A DNA stretch of 24,883 nt from IMG/VR virus record IMGVR_UViG_3300008954_000257, positions 1-24,883 of that record; one strand, written 5' to 3'. Source of the DNA: a virus. The first letter of the stretch is position 1. Every line of letters begins with the position of its first letter. The translations under genes and the position numbers were made by a program. The notes under the pieces were generated by a model. It was not told the origin of the DNA. It worked only from the letters and a program-made list of their open reading frames with translations, and made no database searches. Shown here one piece after another: positions 1,117 to 24,883 of this stretch.

Positions 1117-3546
1117 ATGGCAGAACGAATTGTGTCACCAGGTGTCTTTACTCGTGAAAGAGACCTTTCATTTCTTCCAGTAGGAATAGGTGAAATTGGT
1201 GCAGCAATAATAGGTCCTACTAAAATAGGCCCTGCATTTACACCAACCCAAGTTACCACATATCAAGAATTTGAGGAAATGTTTGGTGGTGAAGATGCAA
1301 AATTTTATACACCATACACAGTAGAACAATATCTACGTAGTGCTGGTGTAGTAACAGTAGTTAGAGTATTAGGTTTAGGTGGATATGCAGTTGATACTAT
1401 TAGATTAGGTTCGTTTGAATCTGCTTCAGCAACTACTTCATCTTTAGCTATCCTAGCACCATCATTAGGTACTGCAGCTGATACAGATTTGAGTGCGGCC
1501 ACATTAAGTGGTAGTCAATCCGTTAATACCAATTCAAGTTTCACACTTGTTGTAAGTGGTAGTAGTGTTACTGCAGAAACTTACTCACTTTCGTTTGATA
1601 CTGGTAGTGCAAACTTCGTTGATAAAGTAATATCTTCAGACCCACAATCTACAAAGTCTGGTGGTAGTACATCTTCAGTATATGTTTATAAAGTATTTAA
1701 ACAAAAAGCTTCAACATTAAATAATATAGCTTCAGCGTCTGTTACAGTAGGTAATGCTGGTAATAATAGATTAAATTTTGAAGGTGTTACCTCATTTGAT
1801 AGTAATGGTAATGCTTCATCATTTACCGGTAACAAAGATTATATGTTTGGTAGAACACCTTACATTCAGTCTCAGTTAATTAACAGTACAAGATATAATT
1901 TATTTAGAGTTTATACACGCTCACATGGTACAGATGTAAACACAACTTATAAAATCAGAGTTGTAGATGTTAAACCAGATACAGATATAGCAGGTTCAGA
2001 TTATGGTACATTTGCTTTACAAGTTGTTAAACACGGTGATGAGATAATTTTAGAAGAGTATTCTAATTTAACACTTGACCCAGATTCATCAAACTTCTTT
2101 GCTAAGAGAATTGGTGATAGATGGACCGAAATAGACTCAGATGGTAAACTTACTCATTATGGTGATTATCCAAACTTGAGTAAATATGTTCGTGTTGGTG
2201 ATTTCGCTGATATGGAAAAAGATGGTGTGTTTAAGTTTCCAAAGAACGTTGTTCCAATGGGTCACGCAGCATTAAGAAACCCAGTTCCGGGTGGCACTGC
2301 TATACCAGCAGTTCAATTTAAAACAGACCAAACAAACACAAATGGTACTTTTGATTCAAGTGTTGCATTTGGTATTGATTTGATTAGTGATTACATTAAA
2401 ACAGACAACGAACAATATCTATCTCCAATCCCAGTTGGTTCAGGTAATGGTAATAATGTTACTATGTCTCTTGAAGACCAATCTGGTAATGCAGATGCTA
2501 GTGTATTAGGTGATACATATTCAGATGCTAGTGAAAATATAACACTAACTTTATCTGCAATAGGACAAAGAAAGTTTGCTGTTCCATTCCAGTTCGGTTT
2601 TGATGGTCAAAACCCAGCTAGAAATTATAAAACAGGTGCTGACATTGTTTCAGGTAATACAATGGGATTTGATTTATCAAGTGCTCCAAAGAGTGGTTCA
2701 GTAGCTTACAAAAGAGCTATTAATTCAATCTCTAATCCAGATGAGTTTGATATCAACTTGTTAGCAACACCCGGTGTAATTCATGGTTTACATTCAAGTG
2801 TAACAAATCACGCAATATCTAAAGTTGAATCAAGAGCAGATGCAATGTATGTAATGGATTCAGCAGGATATAGTGATTCAATTCAAACTGTAACTAGTAC
2901 AATCAAAACTCTTGATACAAATTATGCAGCAACATATTATCCTTGGGTAAAGATAGCTCCAAGAGATACATCAAGACCAGTTTGGGTTCCACCATCAGTA
3001 GTATTACCAGGTGTAATATCTTATACTGATAGAGTAGCTCACGAATGGTTCGCACCAGCAGGTCTGAATCGTGGTGGTTTGACTACAGTATTAGAAGCTA
3101 AAACAAGATTGACTCATTCAGAAAGGGATGACCTTTATGAAAACAGAATCAATCCAATCGCTTCTTTCCCAGGTCAAGGTGTAGTGGTATTCGGACAGAA
3201 AACACTACAATCTAAACCATCAGCGTTAGATAGAATCAATGTTCGTAGATTATTGATTGCATTGAGAAAGTTCATTGCATCATCTTCAAGATACTTGGTA
3301 TTTGAACAAAATACACAAGCATTAAGAAATCGTTTCTTGAACATTGTCAATCCTTACCTAGAACAAGTTCAGTCCAATAGTGGATTAAGTGCGTTCAGAG
3401 TAGTAATGGATGACTCTAATAATACACCTGATGTTGTTGATAGAAATCAATTAGTTGGACAAATCTTTATTCAACCTACGAGAACTGCAGAGTTTATCGT
3501 ACTTGACTTTGTTGTTCAACCAACAGGAGCAACATTTCCTGAATAA
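1117..3546 (+). CDS. Tail sheath protein (gp18-like)
   Basis: This is the contractile sheath subunit that polymerises around the tail tube and contracts during infection. The N-terminus has the typical SPGVFTRERD start followed by a segment with AAIIGPTKIGPAFTP. The C-terminal third is the conserved sheath core, with NPIASFPGQGVVVFGQKTL, then RRLLIALRKFIA, and the final segment FIQPTRTAEFIVLDFVVQPTG. At 809 residues it is longer than T4 gp18 (about 659). The extra length seems to lie in a Ser/Thr/Asn-rich segment (about residues 105-255), probably a surface-exposed insertion. AGGAG precedes the ATG. It is a monocistronic unit, bounded by a promoter motif at 1048 and a strong terminator at 3578, which fits a very highly expressed structural gene. 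Confidence 0.95.
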   Translation: MAERIVSPGVFTRERDLSFLPVGIGEIGAAIIGPTKIGPAFTPTQVTTYQEFEEMFGGEDAKFYTPYTVEQYLRSAGVVTVVRVLGLGGYAVDTIRLGSFESASATTSSLAILAPSLGTAADTDLSAATLSGSQSVNTNSSFTLVVSGSSVTAETYSLSFDTGSANFVDKVISSDPQSTKSGGSTSSVYVYKVFKQKASTLNNIASASVTVGNAGNNRLNFEGVTSFDSNGNASSFTGNKDYMFGRTPYIQSQLINSTRYNLFRVYTRSHGTDVNTTYKIRVVDVKPDTDIAGSDYGTFALQVVKHGDEIILEEYSNLTLDPDSSNFFAKRIGDRWTEIDSDGKLTHYGDYPNLSKYVRVGDFADMEKDGVFKFPKNVVPMGHAALRNPVPGGTAIPAVQFKTDQTNTNGTFDSSVAFGIDLISDYIKTDNEQYLSPIPVGSGNGNNVTMSLEDQSGNADASVLGDTYSDASENITLTLSAIGQRKFAVPFQFGFDGQNPARNYKTGADIVSGNTMGFDLSSAPKSGSVAYKRAINSISNPDEFDINLLATPGVIHGLHSSVTNHAISKVESRADAMYVMDSAGYSDSIQTVTSTIKTLDTNYAATYYPWVKIAPRDTSRPVWVPPSVVLPGVISYTDRVAHEWFAPAGLNRGGLTTVLEAKTRLTHSERDDLYENRINPIASFPGQGVVVFGQKTLQSKPSALDRINVRRLLIALRKFIASSSRYLVFEQNTQALRNRFLNIVNPYLEQVQSNSGLSAFRVVMDDSNNTPDVVDRNQLVGQIFIQPTRTAEFIVLDFVVQPTGATFPE

Positions 3547-3683: not shown

Positions 3684-4169
3684 ATGGCTACATTAGACCC
3701 TTCAGAAATTATGTTTACTCCGTTTGAGCCGAAAACAAAAAATCGGTTCATTATGTATATTGAAGGTGTACCGGCATATTTAATCAAGGCAGCTAACAGA
3801 CCTCAGATACAGTTTGAGGAAATTATTCTTGACCATATCAATGTCAAACGATATATTAAAGGTAAAGGAGCTTGGCAGCCGATTGATATAGTACTTTATG
3901 ACCCAGTTGTCCCAAGTGGTGCACAAGCAGTTATGGAATGGGTTAGATTATCACACGAATCAGTAACAGGTCGTGATGGTTATTCAGATTTTTACAAAAA
4001 AGATGTAACTTTTAATATGTTGGGTCCAGTAGGTGATGTAGTTGAAGAGTGGACATTAAAAGGTACATATATAGAAACAGCTAATTTCGGTGATTTAGAT
4101 TATGCAACAAGTGACCCAGCTGAAATTACATTAACACTTAAATATGATTACGCAATCTTACAATACTAG
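3684..4169 (+). CDS. Tail tube protein (gp19-like)
   Basis: This is the major tail tube subunit, forming the inner conduit within the sheath. The protein starts MATLDPSEIMFTPFEPKTK and contains FIMYIEGVPAYLIKAANRP, typical of T4-like tube proteins, followed by a beta-rich body and the ending LTLKYDYAILQY. I chose ATG at 3684 because AGGAG lies at 3672-3676. The in-frame ATG at 3639 overlaps the promoter motif and would add a 15-residue extension absent from the family. The resulting 161 residues match the usual length (T4 gp19 is 163). Its position after sheath and before the chaperone-like gene is the standard order of contractile-tail clusters. Confidence 0.93.
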   Translation: MATLDPSEIMFTPFEPKTKNRFIMYIEGVPAYLIKAANRPQIQFEEIILDHINVKRYIKGKGAWQPIDIVLYDPVVPSGAQAVMEWVRLSHESVTGRDGYSDFYKKDVTFNMLGPVGDVVEEWTLKGTYIETANFGDLDYATSDPAEITLTLKYDYAILQY

Positions 4170-4405: not shown

Positions 4406-5152
4406 ATGGCTGATTACAAATTCCCTACAGAGATGGTAGATTTACCATCTAAAGGGTATTTCTACTTTGATGGTCATCCCTTATCTAGTGGTAAAGTAGA
4501 GATAAAATATATGACTGCGAAAGAAGAAGATATTCTTACTTCACAAAATCTAATACAACAAGGTACAGTTATAGACAAGTTATTGGAATCACTAGTAGTA
4601 GATAAATCTGTTAAGTTAGATGATTTACTTATTGGTGATAAGAATGCTATAATGGTAGCCGCTCGTGTTCTTGGATATGGTAAAGATTATCAATTTACTT
4701 ATGACGGTGAAGAACAATCAGTTGATTTATCAAAACTTGAACCAGTTAAATTAGATTTCAGTAAATTTACTCGTGGTAAAAATGAGTTTGAGTTTAAATT
4801 ACCAACTTCAGAACGAATAATTACTTTTAAATTACTTACAGGTAGTGATGAAAAAAAGATAGATGTAGAAGCAAAGGCTAGAGAAAAAATTTCAAAAACA
4901 CAAACATCTGAATTAACAACTCGTCTTAAACATATGATATTATCAGTAGATGGTAATAGTGAAAAATCACATATTAACAACTTTGTTGATAATGAGTTTT
5001 TATCAAGAGATTCCTTAGCTTTTAGAAAGTATTTATCTGAAATCACACCTGACATGGATATGACTACAAAGATAGTTGATTCAGAAGGGAAGGAGACAGC
5101 AGTGGTGATTCCAATCACCGTTCGATTTTTTTGGCCTTCCGTCGGAGTATAA
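4406..5152 (+). CDS. gp26-like baseplate hub protein, possible tail assembly chaperone (short product)
   Basis: The 248-residue product matches the T4-like baseplate family (Pfam T4_baseplate, gp26-type). It begins FPTEMVDLPSKGYFYFDGH, then LSSGKVEIKYMTAKEEDIL, and has a helical core with DLLIGDKNAIMVAARVLGYG. AGGAG at 4395-4399 supports the start. It ends RFFWPSVGV. Immediately before this end there is a run of seven T (5126-5132), and a conserved-looking reading frame continues in the +1 frame to 5342 without a start codon of its own. The gene lies between the tube and the tape measure, the place where tailed phages usually carry a frameshifted tail assembly chaperone pair (lambda G/GT). 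So this may be the short form of such a pair. The family assignment is strong, the chaperone role is inferred. Confidence 0.88.
   Translation: MADYKFPTEMVDLPSKGYFYFDGHPLSSGKVEIKYMTAKEEDILTSQNLIQQGTVIDKLLESLVVDKSVKLDDLLIGDKNAIMVAARVLGYGKDYQFTYDGEEQSVDLSKLEPVKLDFSKFTRGKNEFEFKLPTSERIITFKLLTGSDEKKIDVEAKAREKISKTQTSELTTRLKHMILSVDGNSEKSHINNFVDNEFLSRDSLAFRKYLSEITPDMDMTTKIVDSEGKETAVVIPITVRFFWPSVGV
5126..5132 (+). promoter_or_regulatory. Putative ribosomal frameshift site (seven T)
   Basis: In the gp26 frame the codons are TTT TTT TGG. A +1 slip on TTT-T (or a -2 slip) moves ribosomes into the frame GGC CTT CCG TCG GAG TAT AAA that encodes the gp51-like extension. The tRNA can re-pair perfectly with TTT after slipping. 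A homopolymer sequencing error is the main alternative. Confidence 0.6.
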
Positions 5153-5342
5153 ACTTAGAATACACGAAGAAATATTTCAAATAATATTGAACTCAAAAGG
5201 AGGCTTTACTTTTAGTGAAGTCTACGACCTCCCCATATATCTCAGAACTTTTTATTTAAAACGTTTACAAACGTATTATAAAAAAGAAGCTTCTGAGATG
5301 CAAAAAGAAATGAACAAACATAAAAGTACATTCAAACGATAA
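5133..5342 (+). CDS. gp51-like C-terminal extension reached by frameshift
   Basis: This frame is +1 relative to the gp26-like gene. It encodes 69 residues with clear protein character, GLPSEYKLRIHEEIFQ, then KGGFTFSEVYDLPIYLRTFY and a charged helical tail ending KSTFKR. It is the type of sequence that follows gp26 in T4-like marine phages (sometimes named gp51, from memory). The frame has a TGA at 5106-5108. Between that and 5187 (a TTG within the domain) there is no ATG, GTG or TTG, so independent initiation cannot produce the complete domain. The simplest reading is a fusion with the gp26-like protein through the seven-T run, giving about 311 residues. By position it could be the T part of a G/GT-type chaperone that recruits tube subunits. 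Confidence 0.7.
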   Translation, partial: GLPSEYKLRIHEEIFQIILNSKGGFTFSEVYDLPIYLRTFYLKRLQTYYKKEASEMQKEMNKHKSTFKR

Positions 5343-5401: not shown

Positions 5402-5677
5402 ATGTCTAAATATAAAAAAGCCAGTGAACGTATTGTAGAAGATTTCGTATCTGCTCTTTTTAGTGCTATAGGTAAAGGATTAAGTCCAGCTATTTTAAAA
5501 GGTCTAAAGAGAAAAGACCCTAAATTTGGAAATCTTTTAAGTGATTTAGAAAAATCTCGTGAAAAAGTCAATTCATACGTAAAACAAAGAACTGGCAAAT
5601 CAACATTATCAAAATCTGATATCAAAGCCATAAATAGAGGCGAACGACCTTCTTGGGCAAAAAAAATATCTAAATAG
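5402..5677 (+). CDS. Hypothetical small basic protein, 91 residues
   Basis: ATG at 5402 is chosen over the in-frame ATG at 5390 because TGGAG at 5391-5395 forms the ribosome binding site and itself overlaps the upstream ATG. The protein is basic and mostly helical, with an N-terminal amphipathic region (SERIVEDFVSALFSAIGKGL), a Lys/Arg-rich middle and a tail ending RPSWAKKISK. It contains no cysteine and no membrane segment of convincing length. It lies between the chaperone-like gene and the tape measure, so a tail assembly role is plausible. I do not recognise the family. Confidence 0.75.
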   Translation: MSKYKKASERIVEDFVSALFSAIGKGLSPAILKGLKRKDPKFGNLLSDLEKSREKVNSYVKQRTGKSTLSKSDIKAINRGERPSWAKKISK

Positions 5678-5685
5678 GAAATTAA

Positions 5686-6960
5686 ATGGCTAAAGAACGT
5701 GCAAGGTCACCTGTTACTGGTCGATTTATGAAACAGAGTCAACTTGATTTAGCTACAAAAGCAAATGAAGTTGCTAATAAACAATTAGATACTGAAAAAC
5801 AACTTGGTAAATTGTTCAGTTCTGGACTCAGATTAACAAAATCCAGATTGAGTAATGAAGAGGATATTCACGCGTCATTAGTGGGTCAAAGAGATTTAAC
5901 AAAAGAACAAGTTGATAATTATGACGAACTAGCTAAGAAATCTCAAGAAACAGCTGATGCTATTGAAGATTTAGCCCCTGGAATGGTTTCTTTTGCAAAG
6001 GGAGCTGAACAAACTGCAATGAGTATGCAAGCTTTATTAGGCCCAATCGGTATAGCGATCGCAGTATTCATTTCAATTTATAAAGTAGTTACAGGTGTAG
6101 CAAAGAAAATAGCAGAAACAAGAAAAGATTTAGGTGTTTCTGCAATAGAAGCAGTTAAATTAGAAGCAGCGTTTTTTGGATTAGAAAAAGTAGCAGCGTT
6201 ATCAGGTTTAGAAGCTGAAGATTTAAAAGAGTCTTTTAAAGCCGCAAGAGATAATTTAGGTGCTACTACAGATGAGGCGTTAGGTCTTAGTCTTAATTTA
6301 GCTAAAGTTGCAATGCAAAGTGGTACTACAGCTGACCAATTAACACAAGTACTTTCTGTAATGGAATCAGTATCAGGTGCTAGTAGAGAAGCTCTGTTAG
6401 CTCAGATTGAAATAAATAGACAACTTATAGGTTCAGCTGGATTAGCCCCCGCAGATATATTTAGAGATATCGCTGAGAATGCTGAATTTTTCGCTCAATT
6501 TGCTAAAGATGGTAGTCAAAATTTAATTGGAGCTGGTGTAGCTGCAAGAAAGTTAGGATTAGATATGAGTGTTCTAGCAGGTACAGCAGAATCATTACTT
6601 GATTTTGAATCTTCTATTGAAAAACAATTAGAAGCTTCATTGTTACTAGGTAGACAAATCAATCTTGATAAAGCTCGTCAATTAGCTTTTAATAATGATA
6701 TTGAGGGAATGCAACAAGAAATACTAAGAGCTGTTGGTGGTGAAGCTGAGTTTAACAGAATGAATGTTATACAGAGAAAGGCTTTAGCTGATAGTGTTGG
6801 TGTGAATGTAGAACAATTATCAAGATTAGTTAGAAATAATCAAGCTTCAACTGTTGGTGCTGCAGCAGGTGCAGCAAGTATAGGTGAAAATACATTTAGT
6901 GACCCAGAATCTCATAGATTATTAGGTAAAATCTATGGTGAACTTTCAACAAGAGATTAA
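5686..6960 (+). CDS. Probable tail tape measure protein
   Basis: The 424-residue protein is almost entirely helical, with a charged N-terminal 90 residues, one hydrophobic segment at about residues 115-138 (LLGPIGIAIAVFISIYKVVT) and a long Ala-rich helical body containing a LEAAFFGLEKVAALSGLEAE segment and repeated xLA/LG turns. These are features of tape measure proteins, which fix tail length and are ejected ahead of DNA. It lies after the chaperone-like gene and before baseplate/hub genes, the conserved order. T4's counterpart gp29 has about 590 residues, so this tail may be shorter. Sequence identity to gp29 is not obvious to me. AGGAA overlapping the upstream stop precedes ATG 5686. Confidence 0.65.
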   Translation: MAKERARSPVTGRFMKQSQLDLATKANEVANKQLDTEKQLGKLFSSGLRLTKSRLSNEEDIHASLVGQRDLTKEQVDNYDELAKKSQETADAIEDLAPGMVSFAKGAEQTAMSMQALLGPIGIAIAVFISIYKVVTGVAKKIAETRKDLGVSAIEAVKLEAAFFGLEKVAALSGLEAEDLKESFKAARDNLGATTDEALGLSLNLAKVAMQSGTTADQLTQVLSVMESVSGASREALLAQIEINRQLIGSAGLAPADIFRDIAENAEFFAQFAKDGSQNLIGAGVAARKLGLDMSVLAGTAESLLDFESSIEKQLEASLLLGRQINLDKARQLAFNNDIEGMQQEILRAVGGEAEFNRMNVIQRKALADSVGVNVEQLSRLVRNNQASTVGAAAGAASIGENTFSDPESHRLLGKIYGELSTRD

Positions 6961-21311: not shown

Positions 21312-24300
21312 ATGGAAAAATTTCAGTTATCAGAAAAGTTTATACATAAGTACAAAAGAAAAAAAGCACCTTTTGGGTTTAATGGTCTTGGTGAACTCGT
21401 TTATATGAGAACCTATTCAAGAATTAAAGAAGATGGAAAAAATGAAAGATGGTGGGAAACCGTTCAAAGGGTTGTAGAAGGAACATATTCAATGCAAATG
21501 AATTGGATTAGTTCTCATCAATTAGGTTGGAATCCTTGGCAAGCACAAAAGTCAGCACAAGAAATGTATGATAGAATGTTTAATATGAAGTTCTTACCAC
21601 CAGGTCGTGGTTTATGGGCTATGGGAACACCAATCACCGAAGAAAAGAAGTTATATGCAGCATTAAATAATTGTGCTTTTGTTTCTACTTCTACAATAAA
21701 AGACGATTATTCAAAACCATTTTGTTTCTTAATGGATGCATCAATGTTAGGAGTTGGTGTAGGTTTTGATACAAAAGGTGCAGGTGAGATTATAGTTAAA
21801 GGTGTAAATTGGGATAGAAATCAAGAAATGTTTACTATACCTGATACAAGAGAGGGTTGGGTAGAATCTCTCAGATTATTATTAGAAAGTTATTTTCATG
21901 GAACTGCACCTGTTGGATTTGATTATTCAGAGATAAGAGAAGCTGGAGAACCAATCAAAGGTTTTGGCGGAGTTAGTTCAGGACCTGACCCATTAAAAGA
22001 AGTACACGAAGATATTGTAAAAGTATTAGAAAATAATGTGGGTGAACCAATCACAGTAACTACAATCGTGGATATAATGAACCTAATTGGTAAATGTGTT
22101 GTTGCCGGTAATGTTAGAAGAACAGCGGAAATTGTGTTCGGTGATCCACATGATGAAGAATATTTAGATTTAAAGAATTATAAAGTAAATAAACACAGAG
22201 AAACTTATGGTTGGACTTCAAACAATTCGATATTTGCAGAACTTGGTATGGATTATACAGAAGTAGCAAAACGTATTGTGGATAATGGTGAGCCAGGTTT
22301 AGCGTGGTTAGACAATATGAGACATTATTCTCGTATGAAAAATGGTGGAGATGATAAAGACCATAGAGTTGCAGGCGGAAATCCTTGTATTGTTGGTGAA
22401 ACATTAGTAGCAGTAGCTGATGGTAGAAACGCGGTTCCAATTAAAGATTTAGTAGATACTCAATATCCAGTTTATTCGGCCGATGGAAATGGAAAAGTAG
22501 TTATCAAACAATCAATTAAAACTTGGAAAACAAAAGAAAATACAGAAGTATGGAAACTTACTTTGGATGATGGTTCTACTTTATTAGCAACACCGGATCA
22601 TAAAATTATGCTACGAAGTGGTGAATATAAAGAACTTAGAGATTTACAAAAAGATGAATCAGTATTTCCATTTAATAGTTTTAGTAATAAAGGTTATAGA
22701 AATATACGAGGTACTGGTAAAAGAGCGAGTGGTATAAGGCAGTATAGATTGATTACTGAAAATGAACTTGGTTATATGCCTAACGCCAAAGAGTATGCTA
22801 TTCATCATATAGATTTTGATAAGACAAATGATAGGTGGGATAATTTAGATGTTATGACTCAATCAGAACATAGTAGATTACATAGATTAGATAAGAATCC
22901 TATGCATAATCCAGAATATGTAGAAAAGATGAAAGAAACTACTCGTATTAACGGCGGCCGCCACGGTGACCGGAATAGTATGTACGGTAAGAAGCATAAA
23001 GATTCTACATTAAAATCTATTGGTAAAAAGTCAAAAGAAAATTGGGAAAATCAACGAGATTTTATGATTGAATCTATTAAAAATGGTATGACTGATGAAG
23101 TTAGACAATATATCTCAAACAAAAGAAAAGAAAGAACAGTATGGGTTGATTGGAATTGTCCAGTGTGTAATGAATATAAGACACTTACAGAATATCAAGC
23201 ATCCAAAAGAAAAACTTGTAGTTATTCTTGTTCCAATGTTAAAAGAGGAATGGTCAATCAAGGTATTTGGAATCACAAAGTTGTATCGGTTGAATTTTAT
23301 GGATATGAAGATGTTTATGATATGACTGTTGAAGATACACATAATTTTGGTGTGATAACGTCTACAAAAGACGACACATATTTAGATTCATCTGGTTTGT
23401 TTATCCATAATTGCCTAGAGCAAAGTTTGGAAAGCTACGAACTTTGCTGTCTTGTAGAAACATTTCCAAACAATCACGATGATTTTGAAGATTATAAAAG
23501 AACACTTAAATATGCGTATTTGTATGCAAAATCAGTAACACTCGGTAGAACACATTGGAGTGATACAAACAGAGTGATGTTAAGAAATCGTAGAATTGGA
23601 TGTAGTGTAAGCGGCGTTGCTCAGTTTATCACAAACAGAGGTTTAGATGAATTAAGAAATTGGTTGGAGAACGGATATGATGTTATCCAAGATTGGGATG
23701 AAATGTATTCAGATTGGTTTGCAATACCGAAGTCGAAAAAAACGACTTCAGTCAAACCAAGTGGAACTGTATCATTATTAGCTGGCGCGACACCAGGTTT
23801 ACATTATCCTGAGAGTAGATTTTATATAAGACGAATTAGACTATCTAAACATTCAGAATTATTAGAACCACTAAAGAAAGCAGGTTACAAAATAGAACCA
23901 ACATTTGGTTCAGAAGATACAACAATGGTTGTTGAAGTTCCAGTAGATGTAGGAGAGGGAATTAGAACAGCATCTGAATTATCTATTTGGGAACAATTCT
24001 CATTGGCATCATTTATGCAAAGACATTGGGCAGACAATCAAGTAAGTTGTACGGTTACATTTGACCCTGAAACTGAGGGAAATCAAATAACAAACGTATT
24101 AAATTATTTTCAGTATCATTTAAAAGGTATTTCACTATTACCAAGACTCGATAGTGGTGCATATCCACAAATGCCATATGAAGCTATAGATGAAAAAGAG
24201 TATAATAAACAAGTTAAGAAACTTGGTAGACTTACATTCGGTGTAATCAAAAATGAAGAAGCAGAAATCGACCGTTTTTGTAATAACGATAGCTGCGAGG

Positions 24301-24347
24301 TAGTTCCTGCTACAGGAGATAATGATGACCAAGAATATGCTAATTAA
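21312..24347 (+). CDS. nrdJ: Class II (adenosylcobalamin-dependent) ribonucleotide reductase, intein-containing precursor
   Basis: After splicing the enzyme reduces ribonucleotides to deoxyribonucleotides using a cobalamin-generated thiyl radical. Extein landmarks fit the monomeric Lactobacillus-type enzyme: FLPPGRGLWAMGTP, NNCAFVSTS (Cys121, redox pair), GGNP directly joined after splicing to CLEQSLESYELCCLVETF, and SVKPSGTVSLLAGATPG. Cys701 (radical site) and Cys712 (redox pair) are 11 residues apart, as are Cys408 and Cys419 in that enzyme. The C-terminus has FCNNDSCEVV, matching the C-x4-C reductant relay. The exteins total 669 residues, a little shorter than the bacterial enzyme (739). 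GGGAG at 21297 precedes ATG 21312. It needs host cobalamin and no partner subunit. Confidence 0.95.
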   Translation: MEKFQLSEKFIHKYKRKKAPFGFNGLGELVYMRTYSRIKEDGKNERWWETVQRVVEGTYSMQMNWISSHQLGWNPWQAQKSAQEMYDRMFNMKFLPPGRGLWAMGTPITEEKKLYAALNNCAFVSTSTIKDDYSKPFCFLMDASMLGVGVGFDTKGAGEIIVKGVNWDRNQEMFTIPDTREGWVESLRLLLESYFHGTAPVGFDYSEIREAGEPIKGFGGVSSGPDPLKEVHEDIVKVLENNVGEPITVTTIVDIMNLIGKCVVAGNVRRTAEIVFGDPHDEEYLDLKNYKVNKHRETYGWTSNNSIFAELGMDYTEVAKRIVDNGEPGLAWLDNMRHYSRMKNGGDDKDHRVAGGNPCIVGETLVAVADGRNAVPIKDLVDTQYPVYSADGNGKVVIKQSIKTWKTKENTEVWKLTLDDGSTLLATPDHKIMLRSGEYKELRDLQKDESVFPFNSFSNKGYRNIRGTGKRASGIRQYRLITENELGYMPNAKEYAIHHIDFDKTNDRWDNLDVMTQSEHSRLHRLDKNPMHNPEYVEKMKETTRINGGRHGDRNSMYGKKHKDSTLKSIGKKSKENWENQRDFMIESIKNGMTDEVRQYISNKRKERTVWVDWNCPVCNEYKTLTEYQASKRKTCSYSCSNVKRGMVNQGIWNHKVVSVEFYGYEDVYDMTVEDTHNFGVITSTKDDTYLDSSGLFIHNCLEQSLESYELCCLVETFPNNHDDFEDYKRTLKYAYLYAKSVTLGRTHWSDTNRVMLRNRRIGCSVSGVAQFITNRGLDELRNWLENGYDVIQDWDEMYSDWFAIPKSKKTTSVKPSGTVSLLAGATPGLHYPESRFYIRRIRLSKHSELLEPLKKAGYKIEPTFGSEDTTMVVEVPVDVGEGIRTASELSIWEQFSLASFMQRHWADNQVSCTVTFDPETEGNQITNVLNYFQYHLKGISLLPRLDSGAYPQMPYEAIDEKEYNKQVKKLGRLTFGVIKNEEAEIDRFCNNDSCEVVPATGDNDDQEYAN
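22386..23411 (+). mobile_element. Intein with HNH homing endonuclease in the reductase gene
   Basis: The element is 342 residues. It starts CIVGETLVAVADGRNAVPIK (block A, Cys1), has block B LLATPDHKIML (TxxH, His72), block F YDMTVEDTHNFGVI and ends SSGLFIHN, with Asn342 followed by extein Cys. All splicing residues are present. The endonuclease part contains an HNH motif, AIHHIDFDKTNDRWDNLDV then QSEHSRLH (about residues 138-166), NUMOD3-like segments (NPMHNPEYVE, NSMYGKKHKDS) and a Cys pair set C-x2-C (258-261) and C-x3-C (278-282) suggesting a zinc ribbon. It sits between Pro and the catalytic Cys, an invariant site that escapes loss by mutation. The endonuclease appears intact, so the intein may still be mobile. 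Confidence 0.93.
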
Positions 24348-24402: not shown

Positions 24403-24431
24403 TTAACTAAAACAAAATGAGGAGAACGTTT

Positions 24432-24883
24432 ATGAATAAACGCAATCTAATCTCATTAGTAATGACCATGCTAATGCCAATGTTCATTTATGGACAAAGT
24501 GTTAGTGGTACAGTTGCTGATGAGAACGGCAATCCATTACCTGGAGCAAATGTAGTTGTAGAAGGAACTGATTTAGGTGCAGCTTCTTTGGAAGATGGTA
24601 CTTATTCGATTAAAATCGGAGAAGGTTCTTACACACTTACAGCTTCTGTTATTGGATACGCATCGTCTGCTAAATCTATTGATGTTAGTGGTGATGTAAC
24701 TCTCAACTTTGGACTAGTAGTTTCAGCAGTTGAGATGTCCGCACTTGAAGTTCTTGCTTCAAGAGCTGATGAAAAAACACCTGTTGCATACACGACAGTT
24801 AGTAAAGAAGAAATGGAACTTCGTCTTGGTAGTCAAGACATTCCAATGGCTTTGAATACTACACCAAGTGTATATGCAACTCA
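24432..24883 (+). CDS. TonB-dependent outer-membrane receptor, N-terminal part (cut by window end)
   Basis: ATG 24432 has a strong GAGGAG site at 24419-24424. The visible 150 residues start with a signal peptide (about 1-21, MNKRNLISLVMTMLMPMFIY, cleavage near GQS), followed by a carboxypeptidase-regulatory-like beta domain at about 22-100 (SGTVADENGNPLPGANVVVE, GYASSAKSIDVSG), a linker with a possible TonB-box region (ALEVLASRADE) and the start of the plug domain (EKTPVAYTTVSKEEM, DIPMALNTTPSVYAT). Such proteins import bulky substrates across the outer membrane using TonB. This layout is typical of Bacteroidetes and Marinimicrobia. It is unusual in a phage, looks less AT-rich than its neighbours, and may be a host-derived gene. 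The barrel is beyond the window, so substrate and intactness cannot be judged. Confidence 0.9.
   Translation, partial: MNKRNLISLVMTMLMPMFIYGQSVSGTVADENGNPLPGANVVVEGTDLGAASLEDGTYSIKIGEGSYTLTASVIGYASSAKSIDVSGDVTLNFGLVVSAVEMSALEVLASRADEKTPVAYTTVSKEEMELRLGSQDIPMALNTTPSVYAT

What the first reader, a model, noticed from the sequence alone, without database searches (positions are those of the whole stretch)
4406..5342. Apparent programmed frameshift joining gp26-like and gp51-like products in the tail assembly chaperone position
The gp26-like frame ends at 5152, but a conserved-looking 69-residue sequence (GLPSEYKLRIHEEIFQ and onward) continues in the +1 frame. It has no start codon between its upstream TGA (5106) and a TTG well inside the domain (5187). 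The two frames meet at seven T (5126-5132), an ideal site for a +1 or -2 slip. The gene sits between tube and tape measure, where most tailed phages use a frameshifted chaperone pair (lambda G/GT, Mu -2). T4-like gp26/gp51 are not usually discussed in those terms, so this may unite them with G/GT. A homopolymer sequencing error would also explain the frame change.
Basis: partly seen in the sequence, partly recalled or inferred. Interest (0 to 1): 0.8.

Follow-up and report, generated by a model that had tools for sequence, protein, structure and literature searches.

The report
Plus-one frameshift in phage tail chaperone
A marine phage makes a short and a long version of its tail-assembly chaperone from one gene, apparently by ribosomes slipping one base forward at a run of T, and in hundreds of relatives a small RNA hairpin just before the slip site is conserved in a way that suggests it sets the direction of the slip.

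Summary
The T4 gp26-like gene (4406-5152) runs into a 70-codon +1-frame extension (5130-5339, stop 5340-5342) at CGA TTT TTT TGG. In a first survey 196 of 202 relatives carry a +1 extension, under purifying selection in that frame only (pN/pS 0.12); over half of distinct relatives have no start codon in that frame before it. Synonymous re-pairing after a +1 slip on a Phe codon is possible in 153 of 153 distinct members; -2 fails in 28. The N part resembles a tail-assembly chaperone in predicted fold and position. Best reading: programmed +1 ribosomal frameshift giving short and long chaperones. That T4 gp26/gp51 are such a pair is already published (Vladimirov 2022), and cyanophages, a pelagiphage and KVP40 have a -1 arrangement at the same FF motif. 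New here: the +1 form of this family in a large uncultured lineage, and a hairpin ending 3-7 nt before the slip codon, enriched in +1 clades, replicated in held-out loci and depleted in the -1 clade, as 70S biochemistry predicts. Main rival: hairpin-stimulated transcriptional slippage. No protein evidence exists.

The parts
4406..5152 (+). Tail assembly chaperone, short form (TAC-N; T4 gp26-like), 248 aa
   Evidence: PHROG_150 baseplate hub 1e-11; AlphaFold pLDDT 89, best Z in the PDB re-alignment is HK97 tail assembly chaperone 2OB9, Z 4.3 over 97 residues
5101..5122 (+). Upstream hairpin: core GGTGAT (5104-5109), loop TCCA, ATCACC (5114-5119); up to 9 pairs including G-U, 3' arm ending 3 nt before the slip codon
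   Evidence: Stem strength above synonymous recodings in the clade, z 10.1; registers, covariation and held-out replication
5123..5125 (+). CGA codon, predicted in the E site at the shift
   Evidence: Position relative to the slip codon; geometry as in the reporter of Huang 2018
5126..5132 (+). Slip site, seven T; predicted +1 slip of P-site tRNA-Phe from UUU 5126-5128 to UUU 5127-5129
   Evidence: Invariant TTT in 134 distinct clade members while the codon before it varies; re-pairing count
5130..5342 (+). +1-frame extension (TAC-C), 70 codons plus stop; fusion 311 aa
   Evidence: pN/pS 0.12 in the +1 frame only; conserved in 196 of 202 relatives; helical model pLDDT 81
3684..4169 (+). Tail tube protein (gp19-like), context upstream
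   Evidence: PHROG_4542 4e-27
5402..5677 (+). Small unknown ORF between chaperone and tape measure
   Evidence: ORF with SD-like GGAG; no confident family hit
5686..6960 (+). Tape-measure-like protein, 424 aa, context downstream
   Evidence: Weak Pfam TMP_3 match 8.7e-4, below the curated cut-off; position

Best explanation
One gene makes two tail-assembly chaperones. Most ribosomes read 4406-5152 and stop (TAC-N, 248 aa). A fraction slip +1: with CGA in the E site and tRNA-Phe on UUU 5126-5128 in the P site, the tRNA re-pairs one base forward on UUU 5127-5129, and translation goes on at 5130 in the +1 frame to 5339, giving a 311-aa TAC-NC. An mRNA hairpin that refolds behind the ribosome (5101-5122) favours the forward slip and opposes a backward one. 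By analogy with lambda G/GT, the common N part coats the tape measure and the rare C extension recruits tail-tube subunits. Shown by comparison: the two-frame gene, selection on the extension in the +1 frame, the slip-site constraint, selection for the hairpin. Inferred: frameshifting in vivo, its efficiency, the effect of the hairpin and the chaperone role.
For: 196 of 202 first-survey relatives and 85 of 89 in a second set have the +1 extension. Extension pN/pS is 0.12 in the +1 frame against 2.4 and 1.3 in the others. The periodicity of conservation switches frame at the TTT. Of 155 distinct members, 86 have no ATG, GTG or TTG upstream of the extension. +1 re-pairing is possible in 153 of 153, -2 in 125. 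Hairpin against synonymous recoding: z 10.1, 6.0 and 2.4 in three +1 clades and -3.2 in the cyanophage -1 clade; signs hold after thinning to 80% identity (4.4, 4.3, 2.3, -1.8); held-out set z 8.3, thinned 6.4. Covariation at synonymous Thr third positions, G-C to C-G. 70S biochemistry: an upstream hairpin next to the E site stimulates +1 and attenuates -1 (PMC6321510). Predicted fold resembles the HK97 chaperone. Eight frameshift-type genomes scanned have one copy of the gene each; T4, without frameshift, has two.
Against: No proteomic, ribosome-profiling or reporter data. A start codon lies upstream of the extension in 69 of 155 distinct members (21 with ATG), so separate initiation is not excluded for every member. 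The hairpin is weaker in the wider clade and the SP-15 clade (about half pass the threshold). The sequences are related, so z values overstate independence; in the held-out set a control position also gave a weak excess (z 2.1, thinned 3.6). The HK97 match is modest (Z 4.3). No slow A-site codon and no properly spaced internal Shine-Dalgarno was identified.
Confidence: 0.8

Rival explanations
1. Hairpin-stimulated transcriptional slippage: RNA polymerase drops one U in the T run while the nascent hairpin sits at the RNA exit channel, and normal translation of the shortened mRNA gives the fusion.
For: Roseiflexus IS630 uses such a stem-loop to make transcripts lacking one base, which is the +1 direction (PMC5009743). 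The window has a hairpin followed by seven T.
Against: The run is broken in many members that keep the +1 extension: TTTCTTT, TTCTTT, TTTCTATTC, TTTTTA. LR756508 has a 7-bp hairpin but no homopolymer. The hairpin core lies 6 nt from the run, so the 9-bp hybrid would be heteropolymeric when the hairpin reaches the exit channel (inference).
Confidence: 0.12
2. Separate translation of the C-domain from an internal or non-standard start, by re-initiation near the frame-0 stop.
For: In the window TTG 5187 lies in frame; 69 of 155 distinct relatives have a start codon upstream of the domain. Mel-JY01 is annotated with two overlapping genes.
Against: 86 of 155 have no ATG, GTG or TTG upstream of the domain, including the window, where TTG 5187 would cut off the conserved FFGLPSEYK...EEIFQ part. 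Slip-site and hairpin conservation would be unexplained. T4 keeps a C domain fused to an N part in gp51.
Confidence: 0.06
3. -2 ribosomal frameshift, as in phage Mu, giving one extra Phe.
For: Reaches the same frame; in the window itself TTT TTT allows perfect -2 re-pairing.
Against: Synonymous re-pairing after -2 fails in 28 of 153 distinct members, after +1 in none. An upstream hairpin is expected to oppose backward slips (PMC6321510).
Confidence: 0.05
4. Sequencing or assembly error in the homopolymer; in truth one continuous frame.
For: Homopolymer runs are error-prone.
Against: Same two-frame structure in over 200 contigs and several isolate genomes, also where the run is interrupted.
Confidence: 0.01

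Closest known systems
Lambda gpG/gpGT tail assembly chaperones (and HK97 gp13, P2 E/E', Mu gp41/42)
   Same: Position before the tape measure, short ORF with a frameshifted C extension; predicted fold best matches the HK97 chaperone
   Different: +1 instead of -1 or -2; no sequence homology shown; upstream hairpin as the putative stimulator
T4 gp26 (short) and gp51 (long), PF12322 / PHROG_150
   Same: N part belongs to PHROG_150; gp51 is the same kind of N part plus a C domain
   Different: T4 has two divergent genes and no frameshift; here one gene with a +1 frameshift
gp26 genes of T4-like cyanophages (S-PM2), pelagiphage HTVC008M, phiM12, KVP40
   Same: Single orthologous gene with an out-of-frame C extension starting at the same FF motif
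   Different: -1 at U UUU UUY, and no upstream hairpin (depleted in the cyanophage clade)
prfB (RF2) +1 frameshift, CUU UGA
   Same: +1 P-site slip with a duplex just upstream of the E site; the immuto site CTT TGG looks alike
   Different: Intramolecular hairpin in place of the Shine-Dalgarno duplex; no stop codon in the A site
Roseiflexus IS630 stem-loop-mediated transcriptional slippage
   Same: Stem-loop 5' of a slippery run giving access to the +1 frame
   Different: There the stem-loop is adjacent to T5C5 and RNA polymerase slips; here it is spaced, with runs broken in many members

Membership tests
Long-tailed-phage tail assembly chaperone (G/GT type) | Gene between major tail protein and tape measure | tested here: met
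   Tube 3684-4169 upstream, TMP-like 5686-6960 downstream; same order in immuto, SP-15, LIS04
Long-tailed-phage tail assembly chaperone (G/GT type) | Short ORF whose 3' end overlaps an out-of-frame extension | tested here: met
   196 of 202 relatives; pN/pS 0.12
Long-tailed-phage tail assembly chaperone (G/GT type) | Chaperone fold | tested here: inconclusive
   HK97 gp13 is best in the VIA list, Z 4.3, rmsd 4.2, 97 aligned; Foldseek E 1.1
Long-tailed-phage tail assembly chaperone (G/GT type) | Two products made in a set ratio, absent from the virion, binding tape measure and tube | not testable with these tools
   Needs proteomics and binding assays
T4 gp26/gp51 family (PHROG_150, PF12322) | Sequence membership of the N part | tested here: met
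   PHROG_150 E 1e-11; PF12322 not reached by the window protein but by SP-15, GXN1 and LR756511 homologues
T4 gp26/gp51 family (PHROG_150, PF12322) | C extension homologous to the gp51 C-terminus | tested here: inconclusive
   Window clade to cyanophage/KVP40 extensions prob 70, E 4e-5; those to gp51 prob 96.5, E 7e-10; direct comparison prob 6. LR756508 fusion aligns through the junction to PHROG_150 21-273 of 282
T4 gp26/gp51 family (PHROG_150, PF12322) | Two separate genes, as in T4 | tested here: not met
   One copy in immuto, Mel-JY01, SP-15, LIS04, LR756508, LR756511, Atu_ph07, PA5oct; two in T4
Programmed +1 ribosomal frameshift | P-site codon can re-pair in the +1 frame in all members | tested here: met
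   153 of 153 distinct members with an identified site
Programmed +1 ribosomal frameshift | Frameshift product detected | not testable with these tools
   No expression data
prfB-type +1 site | Shine-Dalgarno sequence immediately upstream of the slip codon and stop codon in the A site | tested here: not met
   Nearest AAGGAG is at 5090-5095, some 30 nt from the slip codon; A-site codon is TTT

The most novel reading that the evidence does not exclude
A natural family in which a cis-acting mRNA hairpin just upstream of the E site drives +1 frameshifting in bacteria, and in which presence or absence of that hairpin at one orthologous slip site goes with the direction of the shift: +1 with hairpin, -1 without.
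Probability: 0.5. Interest if true: 0.78.

Novelty: new variant of a known kind. Interest (0 to 1): 0.6.

Why it matters
T4 was named in 2016 as the exception to G/GT-type frameshifting (PMC5009743). Its gp26/gp51 family contains +1-frameshifted, -1-frameshifted and two-gene forms of one chaperone, so the change of decoding mode at a fixed place in a gene can be followed in evolution. The upstream hairpin would be a natural counterpart of an effect that I found only for designed reporters, with a clear prediction: the hairpin sets the direction. It also adds a missing long chaperone to the annotation of many uncultured phages and several isolates.

Tried and rejected
Downstream stimulatory structure: none conserved (alifold nearly empty; mean z -1.0 to -1.4 against -0.8 for a control region). 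Internal Shine-Dalgarno next to the slip site: none; an AAGGAG stretch lies about 30 nt away. A joint alignment of all distant members was too diverged for a collection scan. Foldseek in PDB gave no significant match by E-value; the C-domain had no significant structural match in BFVD. Direct comparison of the C-domain with T4 gp51 was not significant. The idea that the hairpin replaces Shine-Dalgarno because the host does not use it was dropped for the window, about half of whose genes carry SD motifs, unlike immuto. Vladimirov 2022 could not be read.

Full report
Observation. The window holds a T4-type contractile tail cluster: sheath 1117-3546, tube 3684-4169, the gene in question 4406-5152, a small ORF, and a tape-measure-like ORF 5686-6960. 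The gene ends in CGA TTT TTT TGG CCT TCC GTC GGA GTA TAA. The +1 frame is open from 5109 to the TAA at 5340-5342, and its first ATG, GTG or TTG is TTG 5187. A +1 slip gives a 311-residue fusion.

It is conserved. Eighty close relatives keep both frames; CGATTTTTTTGGCCT is the same in all but one, L071, where it is CGATTTTTATGGCCT. Across 202 loci, 196 have a +1 extension of at least 90 nt past the frame-0 stop and 5 a -1 extension. For 177 nt the chance per frame is 0.7%. A second set of 89 loci gave 85 with +1; a few of these contigs recur from the first set. Members include isolates: Flavobacterium phage immuto (AGC TTT CTT TGG), Microcystis phage Mel-JY01 (AAC TTT TTT TGG), Bacillus phage SP-15 (GAA TTT TTT CAC), Listeria phage LIS04 (GAG TTT TTT AGT), Streptococcus phage GXN1 (GAA TTC TTT CGT), Rhodothermus phage RM378 (TCC TTT TTT TGG), and the 484-kb metagenomic LR756508 (AAC TTT CTA TTC).

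It is translated in the +1 frame. In the region past the frame-0 stop, 55 distinct sequences of the window clade give pN 0.079, pS 0.664, ratio 0.12 when read in +1, and 2.4 or 1.26 in the other frames. Column entropies show the conserved codon positions switching from frame 0 to +1 at the TTT. Of 155 distinct members 86 have no ATG, GTG or TTG in that frame before the domain. For most members the whole domain can therefore be reached only through the upstream gene or a non-standard start.

Direction. In clade A (window, immuto, Mel-JY01 and others) a synonymous re-pairing after a +1 slip on the first codon exists in 132 of 132 distinct sequences; for the second codon, or for -2, in 111. In the SP-15 clade a +1 slip on one of two Phe codons works in 21 of 21, -2 in 14. 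The codon before the first TTT varies while the TTT is invariant in 134 of 134. Hence +1, most likely on the first UUU in the window; in the SP-15 clade mostly the second. A few SP-15-side members with TTA TTT AAT CCC were not assigned a site and are not in these counts.

Relation to T4. T4 gp26 and gp51 are paralogues: both match PF12322 and PHROG_150; gp51 is the gp26-like part plus about 45 residues. They are two divergently transcribed genes. S-PM2, HTVC008M and phiM12 have one gp26 gene with a -1 extension that matches the C-terminal end of PHROG_150. KVP40 has the same arrangement, as do Agrobacterium phage Atu_ph07, Pseudomonas phage PA5oct and LR756511. In 79 of 80 relatives of S-PM2 a -1 extension follows NNT TTT TTC; the remaining one was not located. 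All begin at the same FF motif. The C domain links up in two steps: window clade to cyanophage extensions (hhalign probability 70, E 4e-5), cyanophage extensions to T4 gp51 (96.5, 7e-10); the direct step is not significant. The LR756508 fusion aligns across the junction to PHROG_150. E-values of single pair comparisons are optimistic.

Chaperone role. The N part was modelled with pLDDT 89. The highest match in the PDB re-alignment is the HK97 tail assembly chaperone 2OB9, Z 4.3, rmsd 4.2, 97 residues; Foldseek alone gives E 1.1. The match is modest but came out on top without being sought, and agrees with position and gene structure. The C part is a helical domain, pLDDT 81.

The hairpin. Between about 25 and 4 nt before the slip codon the window can form AGTGGTGAT-TCCA-ATCACCGTT (5101-5122), with a core of six pairs. 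In 46 distinct sequences of its clade all have a comparable stem, against 37% in recodings that keep the protein. The 5' arm slides by whole codons among three registers while the 3' arm stays put. Stem strength with the 3' arm ending at positions -8 to -4: z 10.1 (window clade), 6.0 (wider clade), 2.4 (SP-15 clade), but -3.2 in the cyanophage -1 clade. After thinning to 80% identity: 4.4, 4.3, 2.3 and -1.8. The same test on 55 new contexts gave z 8.3, thinned 6.4; a control position gave 2.1 and 3.6 there, so the null is not perfect. In 20 sequences chosen by the protein motif PMTV only, the third positions of two codons (mostly Thr and Thr) pair G-C in 8, C-G in 6 and A-U in 1; covariation score 0.204 against 0.139 shuffled, 3 of 500 shuffles as high. 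That helix has only one pair with changes on both sides, so the covariation rests on few events, but these are mostly synonymous.

Mechanism. In a 70S system an upstream hairpin next to the E site stimulates +1 shifting at CUU UGA and attenuates -1 shifting, more so if more stable; the reporter had CGC in the E site (PMC6321510). The window has CGA in the E site and the stem just upstream of it. The enrichment in +1 clades and depletion in the -1 clade are what this predicts. No downstream structure was found.

Rivals. A nascent-RNA stem-loop can also make RNA polymerase drop one base, giving the same frame (PMC5009743 on Roseiflexus IS630). For the window alone this cannot be excluded; for the family it is disfavoured because the T run is interrupted in many members that keep the extension, some of them with the hairpin. 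Separate initiation, -2 shifting and sequencing error are less likely for the reasons given above.

Known or new. That T4-like phages have these chaperones is published (Vladimirov 2022, known here only through the citing papers PMC10885494 and PMC12846349); the second cites it for poly-T -1 signals in T4-like phages. I found no report of the +1 form in this family, nor of a natural upstream hairpin stimulating +1, in the held library, which lacks most subscription papers. I rate it a new variant of a known kind.

Noticed in passing
21312-24347: Ribonucleotide reductase large subunit (class II-like) interrupted by an intein with an HNH endonuclease domain.
   Followed up: partly
24417-24881: Start of a protein with a carboxypeptidase-regulatory-like domain, as in TonB-dependent receptors, at the contig end; unusual on a phage contig, perhaps a moron or a contig-end artefact.
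   Followed up: no
430-723 and 723-998: Two adjacent, apparently paralogous 91-97 aa proteins before the sheath gene, without family matches.
   Followed up: no
5686-6960: Tape-measure-like ORF of only 424 aa, against about 1000 aa in phage immuto, implying a short tail or a split tape measure.
   Followed up: no
5090-5095, and the same region in L003-L183: Purine-rich AAGGAG / GAGGAGG stretch roughly 22-36 nt before the slip codon in many members, Shine-Dalgarno-like but outside known stimulator spacing.
   Followed up: no
L332 (CP070664.1 2764006-2769758): A WOR-3 MAG assembled as a chromosome carries a member of this family with TTTTTTTGG and a +1 extension, possibly a provirus.
   Followed up: no
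L203, L206-L208, L212-L213: SP-15-side members with TTA TTT/TTC AAT CCC AGT in place of TTT TTT; the +1 slip there may use CCC A instead of a Phe codon.
   Followed up: no
L001 4629-4877; L085 3719-3940; L083 3776-4012: Deposited annotations miss the fusion: small hypothetical ORFs or nothing are annotated where the extension lies in immuto, SP-15 and Mel-JY01.
   Followed up: yes
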